Virus record (IMG/VR): IMGVR_UViG_3300005288_000025
Coordinates: 1-35,975 of that record
DNA length: 35,975 bases
Source of the DNA: a virus
Reading direction: 5' to 3' (one strand)
The translations under genes and the position numbers were made by a program. Below, piece after piece: positions 8,957 through 34,966 of the stretch; the first letter of the stretch is position 1; the number at the start of each line of letters is the position of its first letter. Under the pieces are notes generated by a model. The model worked only from the letters and a program-made list of their open reading frames with translations. It had not been told where the DNA came from and searched no databases.

Positions 8957-9058
8957 GGCAAATTTAAAGTAGGGTCTCGGCATTTTGCTGGGGCCTTAAA
9001 ATTGGACTTATGACGAATCTTGTATGCGGATTCTCAACTAATAAAGAGCGTGTACCTA

Positions 9059-9934
9059 GTGGAAGAAGAAATAAATCATAAACCACTTTCTCAAACGGTT
9101 TCTTTTTGGCTGGCTCTTGTTATACCAATAGTTTGTGGGCTTGTGCTTGGGGTGGTAATTGGAGTTAGTTCTTCGTTGGGTGGTGTTTGTTTAACGTCTG
9201 GCTGTGTTAACTATTTTATTGAGATATATAAAGTTCCAATAGCAATTGCAGGTTTTTCCGTACCTCTTGTCGCTATGGTAGCTGCTATTCAGCGGTCAAA
9301 AGAAGCTTTTGTACAGATAAGTTATGGTCAAAAGCAGTATTCAGAAGCTGTGAGTAATAATATGGCGGGAAATTACCTCAAGCATCGAGAAGGATTTTAT
9401 AAACTTATAGAGAACTTTTGTGATATAGAATCAAATAATCGAGTGTCTTGTACGGTACGGGTCGACGTTGGTTATCTTTATATGAGGTTGTTTCCGAAGA
9501 ATAGCTTTAAGTTCTTAGAGTTTAACCAAAAGCGTACTGGTGTGTGGGAAAGGCTGCATGGCAGATTTCAAAAAATGGATGATAATATAAGTGTAGGGAT
9601 GAAGTCTCCGGGGGCTTTCGATTTGGGTGATTTTCTTTCAGAACTCCAAAGGATTCAAAATATTCTGACTATGCGTTTGACTCCTTCAATTTTTTGCGGG
9701 TATGAACGTGATGGTGAACAGCTTGGTTCGGTTATTCGTGGGGCTGAAGAGGATATTAATAACGTTAGTGAGACTGCTGCATTAGTTTTGAGGTTGTACT
9801 TGGCATTGAGTTCATATGCTGGGTTTGAAGTTGCTCTTGGGTCTCATAATGTTTTTTATAGTCAAAAAATCCCTGAGATGCTTGAACTCTCTAAAGTTAA
9901 TGTGAAGTTCGAGCCGGTTAATCACTCTATATAG
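9059..9934 (+). CDS. AT-rich cargo gene: two-helix membrane protein, possibly related to retron Ec48-type effectors
   Basis: A protein of about 291 aa with two N-terminal transmembrane helices (VSFWLALVIPIVCGLVLGVV, and after a short Cys-containing loop, VPIAIAGFSVPLVAMVAAI) and a large, probably cytoplasmic helical domain. The order of a short loop ending CVNYFIEIYKVP, the second helix, then QRSKEAFVQI and NYLKHREGFYKLIE resembles two-TM effectors such as that of retron Ec48. This is pattern memory, not a search. Codon use is strongly AT-rich, unlike the phage backbone, so it is recent cargo. The start is uncertain: GTG 9059 has aaagag upstream, while TTG 9020 would add 13 residues. A defence or exclusion role is plausible but unproven. 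Confidence 0.7.
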   Translation: MEEEINHKPLSQTVSFWLALVIPIVCGLVLGVVIGVSSSLGGVCLTSGCVNYFIEIYKVPIAIAGFSVPLVAMVAAIQRSKEAFVQISYGQKQYSEAVSNNMAGNYLKHREGFYKLIENFCDIESNNRVSCTVRVDVGYLYMRLFPKNSFKFLEFNQKRTGVWERLHGRFQKMDDNISVGMKSPGAFDLGDFLSELQRIQNILTMRLTPSIFCGYERDGEQLGSVIRGAEEDINNVSETAALVLRLYLALSSYAGFEVALGSHNVFYSQKIPEMLELSKVNVKFEPVNHSI

Positions 9935-20157: not shown

Positions 20158-20498
20158 ACACTGCCCCCCAGTTGCAGAGGCACGCTCAGGCTCAGCGGCT
20201 GATTGTTGTCGACGATGGTGCCTTCAAACTCCAGCGACGCCTGACCCTGAAGGTTCGCACCGATGAACTGGATACGGCTGAGGCTGATGCGGGTTTCCCA
20301 GCGCATCAGGGCCATGACGGTGGCGGCGTAGACCTGCAAGCGGGTGAAGTCGTTAAACGGCTGATCCACCAACTCAGGGAGCAGGCTGCCGTATTGGCGG
20401 CGCATGACGCGGGTGCCGATGCGAGTGGTCAGGATATCGGTGATGGACTGGGCGATGTGTTCGACCAGGCCGAGGGCTGCGCCGGTTTCTCGGTTCAT
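20154..20498 (-). CDS. W: Baseplate protein gpW (gp25-like)
   Basis: A 114-aa protein of the GPW/gp25 lysozyme-like family: EHIAQSITDILTTRIGTRVM followed by RRQYGSLLPELVDQP and the WETRISLSRI strand. It initiates sheath assembly at the baseplate. It overlaps both V and J by four bases. Confidence 0.93.
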   Translation of the reverse strand: MNRETGAALGLVEHIAQSITDILTTRIGTRVMRRQYGSLLPELVDQPFNDFTRLQVYAATVMALMRWETRISLSRIQFIGANLQGQASLEFEGTIVDNNQPLSLSVPLQLGGSV

Positions 20499-21067
20499 AC
20501 CGGCTTCTCCGTCTTCGCACCGCCGGGCATTACACCGCCGTGCAGGTGCTTCACCAGGCTGATACCGGCCGCGATGACATCTTCGGACACGGTGACCAGA
20601 CCAGTGATGTTCTGGTTGCCGGTCTGGGTGTAGTCGCCCTCATGGGTGATCGGGCCGACGATGTGGATGCCGCCCGTACTCGTCAGATTGGTGGTGCCGC
20701 CTTCGGCCAGGGTGGCATTTAGGTGGTGGGCGACGCTGTCGTACTCGATGACGGTGCCGTCGCGGTAGGTCGTTCGGTGCAGTCCTTCGCGGTCGCCGTT
20801 GGCCGGGATATTGTCGCTGAACAGGCCTGTCAGGACGATGCCATTGCCGAGCTGGCCGGAAGGGCTGAATAGGATGACTTGCTCGTCGATAGTTGGCGGA
20901 TTCCACTCCCGATCGGCTCCGGCACGGGCGGCAATCCATGGGAGCCAGCCGGTGGTGAGGGTGCCGGTTTTGACCTGCACACGCGGGGGCTTCATCTGGA
21001 CGGCAGCGATGGTGCCGAGGCGGATGAGGTTTTCGATCAGGCGGGCGAGGGTGGCTAAATCGTTCAT
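20495..21067 (-). CDS. V: Baseplate spike protein gpV
   Basis: A 190-aa baseplate assembly protein V. An N-terminal helix (MNDLATLARLIENLIRLGTI) precedes an OB-fold domain with GWLPWIAARAGADREWNPPT and DEQVILFSPSGQLGNGIVL, then a beta-helical spike region; His-rich NQNITGL to HLHGG is near the end. It pierces the host outer membrane. It heads the V-W-J-I-H operon, with an Ogr-type box centred 57 bp upstream. Its 5' 230 bp are duplicated, in decayed form, at 22035-22256. Confidence 0.94.
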   Translation of the reverse strand: MNDLATLARLIENLIRLGTIAAVQMKPPRVQVKTGTLTTGWLPWIAARAGADREWNPPTIDEQVILFSPSGQLGNGIVLTGLFSDNIPANGDREGLHRTTYRDGTVIEYDSVAHHLNATLAEGGTTNLTSTGGIHIVGPITHEGDYTQTGNQNITGLVTVSEDVIAAGISLVKHLHGGVMPGGAKTEKPV

Positions 21068-21113
21068 GGCGCCAATGGTGGCTGTACGCGCGAAGAACCG
21101 CAGTTAGATAGTT

Positions 21114-21134: not shown

Positions 21135-21234
21135 ATCGTTTGAATGATACTGCCCACGACGTTACGTCGCTGTGTGGTGGAATCCCAATTTTTTGTGCAC
21201 CATGTGACATTGAGTATTTTTGGAAGGGGGTGAT

Positions 21235-21876
21235 ATGGGTTTCGATGCTTCTACACTGGTCTTGTATATGCCAGTTTTGAAAGATGGTGTTATAGCACTT
21301 GCGGCAGCTATAACGGCCGGTATGGCTATATACGGATTGAGAGTCTGGAAGAGAGACCTCGTTGGTAAGGAAGTGTACGAAGTGGTGAAGGAATTGGTCT
21401 ATCAAAGTCACTCAATATCAAGGGCTGCTGCGCGGTGCTTATATCCATTAGCGGCTTCTGAGGCGAGGGTTTTTAGTGATGAGGAGCGATTTCATACTAC
21501 TGAGTACGAACGTCTATTTTTAAGTGAGTCTGGCGCATATCGTGCGCGTTTAGATATATATGTAAGCTCTTTGCGAGAGTTTTCCGATGCCTTGTTAAGG
21601 GCGCGCGTTTTGTTGGGGTCAAAGGTTTTAGGGGCGTATAATCCATATGAAAAAGCTTTAGCTAAACCAATAGTCCTAATTAATGAATATCTTACTGTTA
21701 TAGAAGACCGCACGAATACTCCGCATCCTCAGTCTGAAGATGTGATGAGGTTGCGATCTTTGTTTGCCAGCTTTGATCCTCAAAAACATAATGAAATACT
21801 GTTCTCGGTTTATGAGGCTAGAGAGAAGGCGGAAAAATTCTCGCTTCCATATTTGCATAGAAAGTCTATAAGGTGA
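21235..21876 (+). CDS. AT-rich cargo gene: single-helix membrane protein (213 aa), unknown function
   Basis: A protein starting MGFDASTLVLYMPVLKDGVI. One N-terminal membrane helix (about 15-35, GVIALAAAITAGMAIYGLRV) precedes a helical, probably cytoplasmic domain of about 175 residues with no recognised motif. The ATG at 21235 has a ggaaggggg ribosome site five bases before it, so an upstream TTG is rejected. It runs opposite to the surrounding late genes and is strongly AT-rich. It lies between gene V and a decayed second copy of V's start. It is almost certainly a moron; an exclusion or defence role is only a guess. Confidence 0.65.
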   Translation: MGFDASTLVLYMPVLKDGVIALAAAITAGMAIYGLRVWKRDLVGKEVYEVVKELVYQSHSISRAAARCLYPLAASEARVFSDEERFHTTEYERLFLSESGAYRARLDIYVSSLREFSDALLRARVLLGSKVLGAYNPYEKALAKPIVLINEYLTVIEDRTNTPHPQSEDVMRLRSLFASFDPQKHNEILFSVYEAREKAEKFSLPYLHRKSIR

Positions 21877-22034
21877 CCTTCTGAGAACAGGAGGTGCTTG
21901 TTGGTGTGTGGCTGCTGAATTGAAAGGTTTTGTATTTGTAAAACGATTTTAGTTGCGCGAAATAAATTAGTGGATGATCCCTAATTAGAATTGGATGTTT
22001 TTCGGTTAAACTAAGAATAACGTTTTGTTCGTAT
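21877..22034. other. AT-rich intergenic remnant
   Basis: About 160 bp of low-GC sequence between the 213-aa cargo gene and the V duplicate. No gene, promoter or terminator could be supported here. Confidence 0.4.
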
Positions 22035-22256
22035 TACTCAGCTGGTTGGATGGACTGAACAGGATGACTTGCTCGTCGATGGAGGGAAACTTCCACTTGC
22101 GGTCGGCGCCAGCAAGTGCGGCTATCCATAAGAGCCAGCCGGTGATGAGGGATCCGGTTTTGACTTGCACGCTCTTGGCTTCATCTGGACGGCAGCGATG
22201 GTGCCGAGGCGGATGAGATTTTCGATTAGGCGGGCGAGGGTGGCTAAGTCGTTCAT
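22035..22256 (-). pseudogene. V: Decayed duplicate of the 5' end of gene V
   Basis: This stretch aligns with 20847-21067 (the start of V), including identical runs around the ATG (cgggcgagggtggctaa-tcgttcatggcg) and ggatgacttgctcgtcgat. It encodes MNDLATLARLIENLIRLGTI unchanged, then loses frame: a one-base deletion in the ttggcttcatctgg region shifts it. Only about the first 75 codons remain. Upstream it retains the Ogr-type box at 22303-22323, 57 bp from the old start. It is therefore a remnant of a former V promoter and gene, left when cargo was inserted. Confidence 0.85.
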
Positions 22257-22302
22257 GGCGCCGATGGTGGCGCCATGTGTGCGTGACCGCAGCAGTAGCA
22301 AG

Positions 22303-22342: not shown

Positions 22343-23161
22343 TTAAAATCCTTGATACCACCCTAGAGCTCTTCCGATGGCCAGCCCAAGCAAGATACAA
22401 AAAATGTATCCAGGGAAATTTAGGAAACCTGCGATAGCACGCAGGCGTGCTCTAATAGTTTCGTATTCTCTCCGGTAATATCTCTTAGATGCCCTAAGTC
22501 CGCGTGATTTTTCTTTTAGTGTCGAAAAATCCCGCCATATGTTATCTAGAGCACTCAGGCCATGGTTTCTGGTTATGTTGGGCCAGTTTGCATAAGGTAT
22601 AAGCTCGGAGATTTTTAGAGTAGGGTCGGATTGACCTCCCATACCCTCAGCACCTTCCCAGATGAATCGTATTCCTGAGTTTGTGTAGAGCTTATTTCGG
22701 CGATCTTTGTTCTCCCCATCTGCATCTCCGGAGATTACTGATATGGGTACAACGGTAAAAGAGGGATCGAACTGTTTTGCCCATGAAACAATCTTGTGGA
22801 ATAGATATGTGCCTACATGTAGTCCACGCATGCTCCCATCAATCATAACTGATCCGTTCGTCAGCTTTACGGACCTTCGACTGTAATTGAGTTCTCCCCC
22901 CATCTCACTGATAAATTGACCTGATCTGACACCACCACGGCTTCCGTAGAGATAAGTGGCCCTGACTGTTATACGGGCACTTGAATTCGGAATACCTTGT
23001 AGAGACCAAGTGCTCGATTTCAGTTTGGTCTCAATAAGTAGGTAGTGAGTATCTTCGGTATAGGTGGTTTGGTATTTTACTTCGATTATCTCGATATTAT
23101 TATTTATCTCTTCGCTGGTGAAGTTTACATTGACTTCAACTGCCGTGTCATCACGCTCCAT
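22343..23161 (-). CDS. AT-rich cargo gene: GNAT-like domain with C-terminal membrane anchor (272 aa)
   Basis: The central region carries features of a GNAT acyltransferase: MRGLHVGTYLFHKIVSWAKQ (111-130) resembles the acetyl-CoA pyrophosphate loop and helix, and RRNKLYTNSGIRF (154-166) resembles the terminal motif. The first 100 residues are beta-rich. Basic helical residues 215-245 lead to a C-terminal membrane helix (about 250-267, GYIFCILLGLAIGRALGW). A membrane-anchored GNAT is unusual. Low GC content marks it as cargo. Ribosome site aaggga precedes the ATG. It lies upstream of the V remnant and is read in the late-gene direction. The GNAT assignment is by motif eye and moderate; the substrate is unknown. 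Confidence 0.65.
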   Translation of the reverse strand: MERDDTAVEVNVNFTSEEINNNIEIIEVKYQTTYTEDTHYLLIETKLKSSTWSLQGIPNSSARITVRATYLYGSRGGVRSGQFISEMGGELNYSRRSVKLTNGSVMIDGSMRGLHVGTYLFHKIVSWAKQFDPSFTVVPISVISGDADGENKDRRNKLYTNSGIRFIWEGAEGMGGQSDPTLKISELIPYANWPNITRNHGLSALDNIWRDFSTLKEKSRGLRASKRYYRREYETIRARLRAIAGFLNFPGYIFCILLGLAIGRALGWYQGF

Positions 23162-30082: not shown

Positions 30083-31840
30083 ATGACTACGACCGAACTG
30101 CTGCCTATCGACCCGCGCCGCCAATCCAAGTTTCTCTACTGGATGGGTTGGCGTATCTGCGAGATTGCCGAGGCTACGGGCGAAAAGGAAAAAACGCTAC
30201 ACAGCTGGAAGGCTCGCGATGAGTGGGACCGGGCGGACAACGTCGAACGCATCGGCGGGGCGCTGGAAGCGCGGTTGGTGCAACTGATCCTCAAGGAGGG
30301 AAAAAGCGGCGGCGACTTCAAAGAGATCGACCTGCTGCACCGGCAGTTGGAGCGCCAAGCGCGGATCCAGCGCTTTCAGGGGGGCGGTACCGAAACCGAC
30401 CTCAACCCGAACCTGGCCAAGCGCAACGCCGAGCCGAAGAAAAAGGCGGTCAAAAACGAGATTGATGAAGACCAGATCGAGCTGCTGCGCGAGGCCTTCA
30501 TCGATGGCTGTTTCGACTATCAGAAAGACTGGTACCGGGCTGGCAATCAGCGCACCCGCGTCATTCTCAAGAGCCGGCAGATCGGTGCGACTTACTACTT
30601 CGCACGCGAGGCGTTCATCGATGCGCTGGACACCGGGCGCAACCAGATTTTCCTGTCGGCTTCGAAGAACCAGGCCTACCTGTTCCGGGGCTACATTCAG
30701 GCGTTCTGCCGCGAGATTATCGGCGTCGAGCTGACTGGCGATCCCATTGTTCTGCCCAACGGCGCCGAGCTGTTTTTCCTCGGTACTAACGCGCGTACAG
30801 CCCAGGGCTACCACGGCAATTTCTACTTCGATGAGTTCTTCTGGACGTTCAAGTTCGAGGAGCTGAACAAGGTCGCCTCGGGCATGGCGATGCACAAGAA
30901 GTGGCGCAAAACCTACTTCTCCACCCCGTCGAGCATGGCCCACGAGGCGTACACCTTCTGGACGGGCGAGCGCTTCAACAAAGGCAAGCCTGCCGCGCAG
31001 CATACGAAGGTGGACGTGTCCCACGGCGCTCTCCAGCAGGGGCGATTCTGTGAGGATCGGTTGTGGCGGCAGATCGTCACGATCCTGGACGCGGAGCGGG
31101 GCGGTTGCGACCTGTTCGACATCGAGGAGCTGCGCCGCGAGTACAGCCCCGAGGCATTCGCCAATTTGCTGATGTGCGAGTTCGTCGACGACGGCGCGAG
31201 CATCTTTCCGCTGAACCTTTTGCAGTCGTGCATGGTGGACAGTTGGGTCGAATGGGCCGAGGACTACAAACCGTTTGCCATGCGTCCGTTCGGCGACCGT
31301 CAAGTTTGGATCGGTTACGACCCGGCCGAGACCGGCGACTGTTCCGGCATGGTCGTGATCGCGCCGTCACTGGTGCCAGGTGGCAAGTTCCGCATCCTTG
31401 AACGCCACCAGTTCCGGGGAATGGACTTCGCCGCGCAGGCCACGTTCATCAAGAGCGTTTGCGACCGTTACTGGGTGACCTACATCGGCATCGACGTGAC
31501 AGGACTGGGCAGCGGTGTGGCGCAGCTGGTGCGCCAGTTCTTCCCGGCGGTGACCACGTTTAGCTACTCCCCCGAAGTCAAAACCCGCCTGGTGCTCAAA
31601 GCCTATGACGTGATCCACAAGGGCCGGCTCGAATTCGATGCCGGCTGGACCGACATGGCCCAGTCGCTGATGGCGATTCGCAAGACCGTCACCGCCGGCG
31701 GACGCCAATACACCTATACCGCCGGCCGCAACGACAATACCGGCCACGCCGATCTGGCCTGGGCGCTCTTTCACGCATTGCACCACGAACCGCTTGAGGG
31801 GCAGACCACTGCCAACACCGGGCGCATGGAGATTTATTGA
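30083..31840 (+). CDS. P: Terminase large (ATPase) subunit gpP
   Basis: A 585-aa packaging motor, close to the 590 aa of P2 gpP. An N-terminal helix-turn-helix (YWMGWRICEIAEATGEKEKT) is followed by the ATPase with a Walker A-like ILKSRQIGATYYFARE (about 170-185) and Walker B FYFDEFFWTF (about 248-257). The C-terminal RNase H-like nuclease has IGYDPAETGDCSGMVVIAPS and YIGIDVTGLG, with aspartates for metal binding. It cuts cos and drives DNA into the head. Its stop overlaps the Q start. Confidence 0.95.
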   Translation: MTTTELLPIDPRRQSKFLYWMGWRICEIAEATGEKEKTLHSWKARDEWDRADNVERIGGALEARLVQLILKEGKSGGDFKEIDLLHRQLERQARIQRFQGGGTETDLNPNLAKRNAEPKKKAVKNEIDEDQIELLREAFIDGCFDYQKDWYRAGNQRTRVILKSRQIGATYYFAREAFIDALDTGRNQIFLSASKNQAYLFRGYIQAFCREIIGVELTGDPIVLPNGAELFFLGTNARTAQGYHGNFYFDEFFWTFKFEELNKVASGMAMHKKWRKTYFSTPSSMAHEAYTFWTGERFNKGKPAAQHTKVDVSHGALQQGRFCEDRLWRQIVTILDAERGGCDLFDIEELRREYSPEAFANLLMCEFVDDGASIFPLNLLQSCMVDSWVEWAEDYKPFAMRPFGDRQVWIGYDPAETGDCSGMVVIAPSLVPGGKFRILERHQFRGMDFAAQATFIKSVCDRYWVTYIGIDVTGLGSGVAQLVRQFFPAVTTFSYSPEVKTRLVLKAYDVIHKGRLEFDAGWTDMAQSLMAIRKTVTAGGRQYTYTAGRNDNTGHADLAWALFHALHHEPLEGQTTANTGRMEIY

Positions 31841-32874
31841 TGACCGAACAAATGGCCAACCAGATGTTGCCCGCAACTACGCCCGCCACCGGTGCCGGGA
31901 CTCAGGTTTTTTCCTTCGGCGAGCCGACACCGGTCCTGGGCGGTCGGGAGGTGTTCGATTACCTGGAGTGCTGGTTCAACGGGCGGTGGTATGAGCCGCC
32001 GCTTTCGCTGGATGGGCTGGCCCGATCAGTGGGGGCGAGCGTGCACCTGCATTCGGGGTTGATGTTCAAGCGCAACCTGTTGAGCAAGACATTTATCCCG
32101 CATCCGCTGCTGTCGCGGGCTTCGTTTGAGCAGTTTGCGTTGGACTTCCTGTGCCTGGGCAATGGGTACCTTGAGGGCCGACGCTCGCGGTTGGGAGGGG
32201 TGCGTAAGCTGGAAACTCCGTTGGCCAAGTACATGCGCGCCGGGCCGGATGGGCAGTTCTACCAGGTGCGCGGGTGGAAGGATGAACATGCCTTTGAGCC
32301 GGACAGCATTTTTCATCTGCGGGAGGCGGATCTGCATCAGGAGATTTATGGGCTGCCGGAGTGGATCAGCGCGTTGCAGTCGGCGTTGCTGAACGAGTCG
32401 GCGACGCTGTTCCGACGTAAGTACTACGAGAATGGCAGCCATGCGGGGTTCATCTTGTACATGACGGACGCGGCGCAGACCGAGGCGGACATCGATGCGT
32501 TGCGCAAGGCACTGAAGGAGTCGAAGGGGCCGGGGAATTTCCGGAATCTGTTTGTTTACTCGCCGACCGGCAAGAAGGACGGGATTCAACTGATCCCGGT
32601 GAGCGAGGTGGCGGCGAAGGATGAATTCAACTCGATCAAGAATCAGACGCGGGATGACGTTTTGGCCAGCCTGCGCATTCCGCCGCAGTTGATGGGCATC
32701 GTTCCGCAGAATGCGGGTGGGTTTGGATCGATTCGGGAGGCGGCGCAGATTTATGCTGCCAATGAGTTGGAACCTATTCAGACGCGAATGCTTCAGCTAA
32801 ATGATTGGGTAGGGGAGGAGGTTATTCAGTTTAACTTATACAAGTTAAGTGGCTTAGAGTGTGGCGAGAGTTGA
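31840..32874 (+). CDS. Q: Portal protein gpQ
   Basis: A 344-aa portal of the PBSX/P2 gpQ type: EVFDYLECWFNGRWYEPPLS, HPLLSRASFEQFALDFLCLG and the LRIPPQLMGIVPQNAGGFGS block are diagnostic. It forms the head vertex ring for DNA passage. The ATG at 31840 overlaps the P stop. The last 20 or so codons (from about 32800) become AT-rich and the tail LYKLSGLECGES departs from the expected family end, suggesting that the insertion of the neighbouring retron DNA replaced the original 3' end. Confidence 0.94.
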   Translation: MTEQMANQMLPATTPATGAGTQVFSFGEPTPVLGGREVFDYLECWFNGRWYEPPLSLDGLARSVGASVHLHSGLMFKRNLLSKTFIPHPLLSRASFEQFALDFLCLGNGYLEGRRSRLGGVRKLETPLAKYMRAGPDGQFYQVRGWKDEHAFEPDSIFHLREADLHQEIYGLPEWISALQSALLNESATLFRRKYYENGSHAGFILYMTDAAQTEADIDALRKALKESKGPGNFRNLFVYSPTGKKDGIQLIPVSEVAAKDEFNSIKNQTRDDVLASLRIPPQLMGIVPQNAGGFGSIREAAQIYAANELEPIQTRMLQLNDWVGEEVIQFNLYKLSGLECGES

Positions 32875-33000: not shown

Positions 33001-34773
33001 TTATGGGGCAAATATTTTTCCATGGTTGGTAATGATTTTAACTATAGAGTTTAGTAGTGGTTCAAAGCCGGAAAAGTCGATTGTTTTTTGGTTTGCTTTA
33101 ACGACATATTTAGAGAAGTGATTCTTGCTGTATTCAGTTGCAGAGTTGGATTTGTCGGATGGGTTGAATGTTTTTCCATCTAGCACCGTTTTAAGAAGTG
33201 TGGGGTCAAAAAGGTCTTCAATCATACTGTGTTTTTCCTTGCCCAAAGGGGTAGGTAGAACATAAAGATTTTGGCCGATGTAGTGTAGTTCGTCGCTTCC
33301 ATCCGGTTTTGAGCGGAGTTTCTTTATTGCTTGAATTTTGGTGTATATGTCACTCGCTCCGTGATCATTGTCAATCACCATGATCACCGGCTTCATTCCG
33401 TTCGGCGCTTTAAAAAAGGCACACTCTTTCGTGAAGCTAGACATGAACTTCATCAGCTCTCCAGAGCCACCGGTTAACCCCATCAAGCGCTTTATTTGAT
33501 CTGTGTATTTGAATAGCTTTATCTTAAGTTTTTTTGATCCGTCAGCTGAGGTTTCTACAAGTTGTGGGTATTTAGCTGATAAGCTGTAAATTGCGGCGTG
33601 CAGATAAATATTATCGGTTTTTCCCTCGCAAATAATAGTGGGGGTTGTGCTGGCATAGAAGTCTTTATAAAAGATAAATTTTCTATGTGATTGTTCAATG
33701 GCTTTCAGTTTTTCCGGGGCGGCCGTAAAGGCTGGGTTTAATGGGTTTTTTGCTCGCAGCTTTCTGTTGTACTCGTTAATCAAGTAAATGAAGCTAAATA
33801 TGCCATTTAATTGGTGTAGGCTGCCAGCGATTTTTTTTGCTGGACCAATTTTGTCTGCTTTTAATAATTCGAAGCTACCAGTGTGAAATAGACGATGAGC
33901 CATTGCCTTTGCTGTTCGATGATATTCAGCACGAACATGAACTTTTGAGTTGACTACCAATCCCGTCACTGTTTGTCTTGAATCTCTATACTGCAGTCGC
34001 GTCTTTTTTGGGTTTATTTCAAACCAAGAGGATTTGATTGTGTGTTCAAGCGTGGTGCCCGCAACCCATAAATGTGCGTCTGGATCAATGCATCTTGCAA
34101 GATTATTAGAAAAAGCTTTTTTGTTTGTGGAGAAGGTAATGTCGTCAGCGTAACGGGAGTAATTACATTTTTCAGTAAGTGCTAATTTTGCCAAGCGTAG
34201 ATCTAATATGTGTGCAATAAGATTAGATAGGATTGGTGAGCATGGACTACCCTGAGGTAGAGCGTTATTAAAGCATGCAATTTGAGCTAGGACAGTTGCA
34301 ACTTTTGGGTCGAGTTTAAAGTTTTCATTCTTTAAGAAGAAGCCCCTAACGCGTCCAAAGTGAATACTCCCGAAAAAATCTTTTAAATCGATGTTCAACA
34401 CTAGATTTCTATTTCGGTGAGTGACCGCGTTTGTAACTATTGAGTAACCAGGCTTAAATCCATGGGAAAGGGCGGTTTTTTTTGGGGATTTGTATTTAAT
34501 TAATATGGATTTTTTTGCTGCTATTGCTTTGTCAACTTCATCGCTACAATCTTGAAGAAGTGTTGCGACCTGCTTTTGTAAGTATTTCAGCTCCACGCAT
34601 GGAGCCAGTATAGTTCTGGCGCCGCCTGTCTTTTTAGGTATCTCAAACTCTGTGTATAAACTGCTTTTCGATCGTATATACAATAAGTAAGAAATTGACT
34701 TTGCAGGTACTTCTAGTATGTGCGCTAGATCGCTTAGGCTAGATGCCTTCCTTAGCTTTGCCAACCTGGACAT
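33001..34773 (-). CDS. Retron reverse transcriptase fused to a TOPRIM-type effector domain (Ec67-like)
   Basis: A 590-aa fusion, similar in size to the retron Ec67 protein. The reverse transcriptase part spans about 1-320: IPKKTGGARTI (45-55), the retron NAxxH motif (NAVTH, 115-119), LNIDLKDFF with catalytic Asp129, LPQGSPCSP (172-180), the YADD active site (208-211) and the retron VTG motif (269-271). The C-terminal part carries a TOPRIM/OLD-like core: ICEGKTDNIYL with Glu383, VIMVIDNDHGA with Asp468 and Asp470, and a final IEDLF. Retrons pair this enzyme with an RNA to make msDNA and guard against phages. The RNA gene ends 24 bp upstream. The gene is AT-rich, unlike the phage backbone. All key residues are intact. 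Confidence 0.95.
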   Translation of the reverse strand: MSRLAKLRKASSLSDLAHILEVPAKSISYLLYIRSKSSLYTEFEIPKKTGGARTILAPCVELKYLQKQVATLLQDCSDEVDKAIAAKKSILIKYKSPKKTALSHGFKPGYSIVTNAVTHRNRNLVLNIDLKDFFGSIHFGRVRGFFLKNENFKLDPKVATVLAQIACFNNALPQGSPCSPILSNLIAHILDLRLAKLALTEKCNYSRYADDITFSTNKKAFSNNLARCIDPDAHLWVAGTTLEHTIKSSWFEINPKKTRLQYRDSRQTVTGLVVNSKVHVRAEYHRTAKAMAHRLFHTGSFELLKADKIGPAKKIAGSLHQLNGIFSFIYLINEYNRKLRAKNPLNPAFTAAPEKLKAIEQSHRKFIFYKDFYASTTPTIICEGKTDNIYLHAAIYSLSAKYPQLVETSADGSKKLKIKLFKYTDQIKRLMGLTGGSGELMKFMSSFTKECAFFKAPNGMKPVIMVIDNDHGASDIYTKIQAIKKLRSKPDGSDELHYIGQNLYVLPTPLGKEKHSMIEDLFDPTLLKTVLDGKTFNPSDKSNSATEYSKNHFSKYVVKANQKTIDFSGFEPLLNSIVKIITNHGKIFAP

Positions 34774-34797: not shown

Positions 34798-34931
34798 GGG
34801 CCTATAGACACTCATTTGCAAATGTCAATGAATCTCTGAATGGTGAGATTGCAAAAGCTATGTAGGGGCAATACCTGCCACCCTTGATGTCACATATCGC
34901 GATTCGCGATAAAAAATCTGTCTATAGGCCC
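34798..34931 (-). ncRNA. Retron msr-msd RNA
   Basis: Perfect 13-bp inverted repeats, gggcctatagaca and its complement (34919-34931 and 34798-34810), form the a1/a2 stem that brackets a retron RNA. Reading the minus strand, a1 is followed by G34918, the likely 2'-5' branch base, then a U run and a 6-bp hairpin (34896-34910, ATCGCG-loop-CGCGAT), then a second hairpin with one bulge (34864-34884): the msr. The msd holds a 6-bp stem with an 8-base loop (34831-34850) extended by a tttgc/gcaaa outer stem. The layout is that of the Ec67 RNA with a different sequence. Exact ends of msDNA are not determined. Confidence 0.88.
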
Positions 34932-34937
34932 GCTTGC

Positions 34938-34966
34938 ACAATACCAATGTGGCTTTCTGATGTCAT
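34938..34966 (-). promoter_or_regulatory. Promoter of the retron operon
   Basis: On the minus strand, -35 ATGACA (34966-34961), a 17-base spacer and -10 TATTGT (34943-34938) place transcription start about six bases later, exactly at the outer end of a1. One transcript would cover the RNA and then the reverse transcriptase. Confidence 0.6.

What the first reader, a model, noticed from the sequence alone, without database searches (positions are those of the whole stretch)
34798..34966. Retron RNA with its own promoter aligned to a1, divergent in sequence but not in layout from Ec67
The a1/a2 stem, a candidate branch G (34918), a U run plus hairpin, a second bulged hairpin and an msd stem-loop can all be read. 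A -35/-10 pair with a 17-base spacer places the transcript start at the a1 end. The msd is short, so the msDNA is expected to be well under 100 bases.
Basis: partly seen in the sequence, partly recalled or inferred. Interest (0 to 1): 0.7.

Follow-up and report, generated by a model that had tools for sequence, protein, structure and literature searches.

The report
Eco2-type retron in Pseudomonas phage
A Pseudomonas-type P2-like phage carries a complete anti-phage retron of the known Ec67/Eco2 kind, and comparison with 43 relatives confirms its RNA, which makes this a new member of a known kind rather than a new system.

Summary
The reading is right. The minus strand at 34931-34798 carries a retron msr-msd RNA. 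A covariance model built from 43 homologues, with the window left out, finds exactly this stretch (100.4 bits, E 2e-29, only hit in the window). The gene behind it (33001-34773, minus strand, 590 aa) is an RT-Toprim fusion of retron type I-C (Ec67/Eco2). The sigma-70-like promoter ends its -10 box 6 bases before a1, the commonest position in the family. By homology with Ec67 the branch is G34918 and the msDNA should be 71 nt (template 34882-34812); the same rule returns exactly 67 nt for Ec67. Two corrections: the 'second bulged hairpin' lies inside the msd (Eco2 has a single msr hairpin), and the msd stem-loop is neither significantly stable nor conserved. The retron lies tail to tail with the portal gene, the known cargo hotspot of P2-like phages, as in E. 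coli Ec67 prophages. Ordinary in kind: a divergent member (at most 47% RT identity found) of a known type.

The parts
34938..34966 (-). sigma-70-like promoter: -35 ATGACA 34966-34961, 17-base spacer, -10 TATTGT 34943-34938 with TG one base upstream; -10 ends 6 bases before a1
   Evidence: consensus match, not more than chance by itself; position shared by the family, 26 of 44 within 3-10 bases of a1 against 24% in shuffles
34919..34931 (-). a1 arm of the msr-msd RNA, 13 bases, perfect complement of a2
   Evidence: covariation; model hit
34918..34918 (-). predicted branch guanosine (2'-5' priming site), equivalent to rG15 of Eco2; G in all 44 relatives
   Evidence: (invariant column), PMC12405507; chemistry inferred
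34895..34911 (-). msr hairpin, 7 pairs, loop AAU as in Eco2 (rA30-rA31-rU32)
   Evidence: 98.7% of cells paired, 6 of 7 pairs with changes on both sides
34883..34894 (-). single-stranded spacer between msr hairpin and msd, the last 9 bases in register with Eco2 ssRb
   Evidence: alignment A3; PMC12405507
   Evidence: same rule gives exactly 67 nt for Ec67; G at the stop column in 41 of 44
34798..34810 (-). a2 arm, preceded by the conserved GAG (34813-34811)
33001..34773 (-). RT-Toprim fusion, 590 aa, retron type I-C (Ec67/Eco2 family)
31837..32874 (+). P2-type portal gene (gpQ), tail to tail with the retron: marks the cos-proximal cargo hotspot
   Evidence: hotspot described in PMC9122126

Best explanation
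This is a complete type I-C retron (Ec67/Eco2-like) carried as cargo next to the portal gene of a P2-like Pseudomonas-type phage. One transcript starts at or next to a1 and carries the msr-msd RNA followed by the RT-Toprim gene. a1 and a2 pair, and the RT primes at the 2'-OH of G34918 and copies A34812 up to G34882 into a branched msDNA of about 71 nt. The RT-Toprim/msDNA complex holds the Toprim domain off. When an invading phage damages or changes the msDNA, the Toprim domain is released, cuts RNA and stops the infected cell. Shown here: RNA layout, covariation, family of the RT, catalytic residues, hotspot position. Inferred from Eco2: branch chemistry, msDNA length, autoinhibition, RNase activity, defence against competing phages.
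For: Model of 43 homologues hits exactly 34931-34798, 100.4 bits. 96.8% paired, covariation 0.806 against 0.293 in shuffles. The same layout was found by a blind inverted-repeat search in nearly every full-length RT-Toprim locus. Blind model hits in genomes all precede an RT-Toprim. RT-Toprim_I-C 734.6 bits, NF038237 707.6 bits, Eco2 structures E 5e-133. YADD, Toprim acidic residues and most RNA contacts of Eco2 are conserved. The msd rule recovers 67 nt for Ec67. Portal-side hotspot.
Against: No expression, msDNA or defence data exist for this copy. The promoter hexamers are not better than chance apart from their position. Eco2 trimer-loop residues D331/R332/Y333 and metal ligand S513 are not conserved, so assembly may differ in detail. 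The msd hairpin is weak.
Confidence: 0.93

Rival explanations
1. A decayed retron: the RNA and gene are remnants in phage cargo and no longer make msDNA or defend.
For: The retron region is AT-rich and foreign to the phage (40-41% against about 60% G+C), and no close relative of this copy was found.
Against: The 590-codon frame is intact, catalytic motifs are kept, a1/a2 is a perfect 13-bp stem, and invariant positions of the RNA are all kept.
Confidence: 0.05
2. A type I-C retron in sequence that works differently from Eco2 in assembly or trigger, for example not as the R332-dependent trimer, or with another phage trigger than DenB.
For: RT identity to Eco2-like proteins is about 41-43%; trimer-loop residues and S513 are not conserved; the msd sequence is unrelated to that of Ec67.
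Against: RNA-contact residues and the single-hairpin msr with the AAU loop and the same 9-nt spacer to the stop G are conserved. In Eco2 the loop alone was not sufficient for the trimer (PMC12405507).
Confidence: 0.2
3. Chance inverted repeat or an intrinsic terminator/attenuator in front of an RT gene, without msDNA function.
For: A stable stem with a U run nearby can resemble a terminator.
Against: No terminator-like site in the region; strong covariation across 44 loci and an independent model hit.
Confidence: 0.01

Closest known systems
Retron-Eco2 (Ec67), type I-C, E. coli
   Same: RT-Toprim fusion; one msr hairpin with AAU loop; branch G directly after a1; 13-bp a1/a2; stop G; 9-nt spacer; GAG before a2; place next to the P2 portal gene
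   Different: RT about 42% identical; msd sequence unrelated and 71 instead of 67 nt (predicted); trimer-loop residues and S513 not kept; host phage of the Citexvirus kind instead of a coliphage
Type I-C retrons of other P2-like phages (e.g. L017, L119, L032)
   Same: same RNA layout and same convergent place behind the portal gene
   Different: L017 has a portal 87% identical to the window's but an RT only 44% identical, so related phages carry different I-C cassettes at the same place
RT-TIR retrons, PADLOC type XII (L040, L052)
   Same: weak matches of the I-C RNA model just in front of two RT-TIR genes (L040 20.3 bits E 9e-4; L052 15.8 bits E 0.022); related RT domain
   Different: TIR effector instead of Toprim; RNA only remotely alike

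Membership tests
retron (general) | RT with retron motifs NAxxH, YADD, VTG | tested here: met
   NAVTH 115-119, YADD 208-211, VTG 269-271 in the 590-aa product; PADLOC and NCBIfam hits
retron (general) | adjacent msr-msd RNA with a1/a2 inverted repeats and a priming G after a1 | tested here: met
retron (general) | production of msDNA with a 2'-5' branch | not testable with these tools
   needs RNA/DNA extraction; only predicted
type I-C (Ec67/Eco2) | RT fused to a C-terminal Toprim domain of this family | tested here: met
   PDLC02963 734.6 bits over residues 1-585; NF038237 707.6 bits against a cut-off of 450
type I-C (Ec67/Eco2) | Toprim acidic catalytic residues | tested here: met
   E374, D378, D460, D462, E515 of Eco2 correspond to E383, D387, D468, D470, E519; S513 is M517
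type I-C (Ec67/Eco2) | msr with a single hairpin, as in Eco2 | tested here: met
   consensus fold of 44 sequences shows only a1/a2 and one hairpin; Eco2 from PMC12405507
Eco2-like trimer assembly | trimer-loop contact R332 (needed for Eco2 defence) | tested here: not met
   R332 aligns with N346, D331 with L345, Y333 with P347; the loop is variable and the alignment there is uncertain
Eco2-like trimer assembly | RNA-bridged 3:3 complex | not testable with these tools
   needs protein work
anti-phage defence | protection against phage, dependent on RT and Toprim | not testable with these tools
   inferred from Eco2 (PMC12405507, PMC11555353)
Rfam RNA families | match at gathering threshold | tested here: not met
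   no Rfam 15 match; PADLOC distributes retron RNA models (PMC9252829), which were not available here

The most novel reading that the evidence does not exclude
The retron assembles or senses differently from Eco2 (no R332-type trimer contact, unrelated msd). In addition, the I-C RNA architecture shares ancestry with that of RT-TIR (type XII) retrons, so that effectors were swapped on one RNA-RT chassis.
Probability: 0.15. Interest if true: 0.4.

Novelty: new member of a known kind. Interest (0 to 1): 0.25.

Why it matters
It adds a well-supported, divergent type I-C retron in a P2-like Pseudomonas-type phage. It gives a covariation-tested consensus RNA for the type, which Rfam 15 lacks. It also shows that I-C retrons sit in the portal-side hotspot of P2-like phages well beyond E. 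coli. It is of practical use (msDNA length and branch site predicted to the base) but not surprising.

Tried and rejected
Rfam 15 at gathering and relaxed thresholds found nothing useful: SECIS_3 at 20.1 bits over 23 bases, far below its cut-off, is chance. A single-sequence scan of viral contigs found no relative; alignments as queries did. No DNA-level relative of the cassette is in the phage collection. The idea of a conserved msd hairpin was dropped: DNA-fold z averages -0.6 over 44 members, 5 of 44 below -2. A terminator reading was rejected. A search for direct repeats of 12 or more bases between the first 600 bases and the last 1.07 kb of the record, as att sites, found none. The lysine that PMC12405507 calls K562 could not be placed with the printed numbering (D562 in the alignment); the lysine invariant among 18 relatives is K550.

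Full report
WHAT IS THERE. On the minus strand, 34931-34798 holds an RNA-coding stretch of 134 bases bounded by a perfect 13-base inverted repeat. a1 is GGGCCTATAGACA (34931-34919) and a2 is TGTCTATAGGCCC (34810-34798). Between them lie G34918, an A and six T, the hairpin ATCGCG-AAT-CGCGAT, and further bases that end in GAG. 24 bases after a2 begins a 590-codon gene, 33001-34773.

THE PROTEIN. The gene product is an RT-Toprim fusion: PADLOC RT-Toprim_I-C 734.6 bits, NCBIfam retron_Ec67_fus 707.6 bits against a cut-off of 450, and Eco2/Ec67 of known structure (9i2f, 9lm3) E 5e-133 over nearly the whole length. The retron RT motifs NAxxH, YADD and VTG are present. The Toprim acidic residues are conserved, as are most residues that in Eco2 touch the RNA: F46, R56, K66, R184, K245, R247, S253 and H281 correspond to F43, R53, K63, R193, K257, R259, S265 and H293. 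The Eco2 trimer-loop residues D331/R332/Y333 are not kept (roles from PMC12405507).

THE RNA, TESTED BY COMPARISON. Relatives came from genome contigs, viral contigs, sampled genomes and E. coli. In the 260 bases upstream of each RT, a plain search for the longest inverted repeat, blind to any motif, returned one layout in nearly every full-length RT-Toprim locus: a1 (9-20 bp), then typically GATTT, then about 100-120 bases ending GAG, then a2, then the start codon 5-57 bases on. L027 had a longer spurious repeat; the expected one is present there too. 44 sequences remained after removal of near-duplicates and were aligned. RNAalifold, given no structure, proposed the a1/a2 stem and the msr hairpin; 17 of its 20 pairs have compensatory changes. 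Counting the named structure gave 96.8% of cells paired against 72.2% in shuffles, a covariation score of 0.806 against 0.293, and 0.08-0.20 with the partners slid by 1-3 columns. A covariance model of the other 43 sequences hits the window once, end to end, 34931-34798, 100.4 bits, E 2.2e-29. In 299 sampled genomes of one phylum the model hit four; each hit lies directly in front of an RT-Toprim gene, one of them the Psychrobacter locus already in the training set. Over some 50 loci with mostly other RT types and related phages it gave only weak hits (20 bits or less) besides I-C loci.

THE MSD. E. coli NZ_CP027440 holds the Ec67 RNA, and its numbering fits the Eco2 structure paper: branch G15, loop A30-A31-U32, stop at G52, 67-nt DNA (PMC12405507). 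Taking the A of the GAG before a2 as first template base and the G of column 53 (G in 41 of 44) as last gives exactly 67 nt for Ec67 and 71 nt for the window, 34812-34882. The spacer before the stop G aligns without gaps to the 9 bases of Eco2's ssRb. The msd stem-loop is not well supported: z -1.26 in the window and -0.6 on average.

THE PROMOTER. ATGACA-17-TATTGT with TG before the -10 is one of five such matches in 2.4 kb, where 4.0 are expected, so the match alone proves nothing. The position does carry weight: the best promoter-like pair ends 3-10 bases before a1 in 26 of 44 members, against 24% in shuffles, and the commonest distance, 6, is the window's. This supports a start at or next to a1; it does not prove it.

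SURROUNDINGS. The record is a P2-like phage related to the Citexvirus phages Dobby and Sirocco (31-33% of the structural block covered at about 77% DNA identity). The retron is 40-41% G+C in a roughly 60% phage. It lies convergent with the portal gene; Dobby and Sirocco have other, unnamed genes there. In 24 of 25 RT-Toprim loci with a P2-type portal in reach, the portal is convergent behind the RT, mostly within 32-211 bases, including E. coli Ec67. This is the Q-A hotspot described for E. coli P2-like phages (PMC9122126). L017 has a portal 87% identical to the window's, but its RT is only 44% identical.

MECHANISM. By analogy with Eco2 (PMC12405507), the msDNA-bound RT-Toprim is held inactive, and a phage function that attacks the msDNA (DenB is suggested for Eco2) frees a Toprim RNase that stops infection. 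For this phage the likely benefit is protection of the lysogen against competitors. This step is inferred.

VERDICT. A real, complete, divergent member of a known retron type in a known cargo position. Interest is low to moderate. Searches may leave out very near records of the same genome, so 'nearest relative 47%' holds for what was searched.

Noticed in passing
window 20843-21103 and 22033-22292: Partial duplication (79% and 88% identity over 138 and 116 bases, spacing about 1190) of the start of a baseplate-region gene (ORF 20495-21067, minus strand). The two copies enclose a low-G+C ORF (21220-21876) with no Pfam or PADLOC match; this looks like a cargo insertion with a duplicated gene start.
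   Followed up: partly
window 9020-9934 (+): 304-aa protein in a 39.5% G+C island with a weak match to the type IV retron effector model 2TM_IV (PADLOC, E 2.3e-8) but with no RT gene recognised beside it; a stand-alone two-helix membrane protein, possibly a second defence cargo.
   Followed up: partly
window 22343-23161 (-): 272-aa ORF in a low-G+C stretch of the tail region with no Pfam or PADLOC match.
   Followed up: partly
L040:2617-2756 and L052:2614-2751: The I-C RNA model gives weak hits (20.3 and 15.8 bits) just in front of two RT-TIR (PADLOC type XII) genes, suggesting a shared RNA layout between the two retron types.
   Followed up: partly
L017 (IMGVR_UViG_3300017792_000039): Phage with a portal 87% identical to the window's carries a type I-C retron at the same place whose RT is only 44% identical: possible cassette exchange within the same retron type.
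   Followed up: no
L098:3988-5928 (NZ_CP027440 1034461-1036401): The annotated Ec67 CDS starts upstream of the ncRNA, so the annotated protein reads through the msr-msd; the annotated start is likely too far upstream.
   Followed up: no
L006/L010 and L013 (Psychrobacter genome G003): The RT-Toprim of this genome appears split over two contigs (RT part on C128, a Toprim-region match on C96), probably an assembly break or disruption.
   Followed up: no
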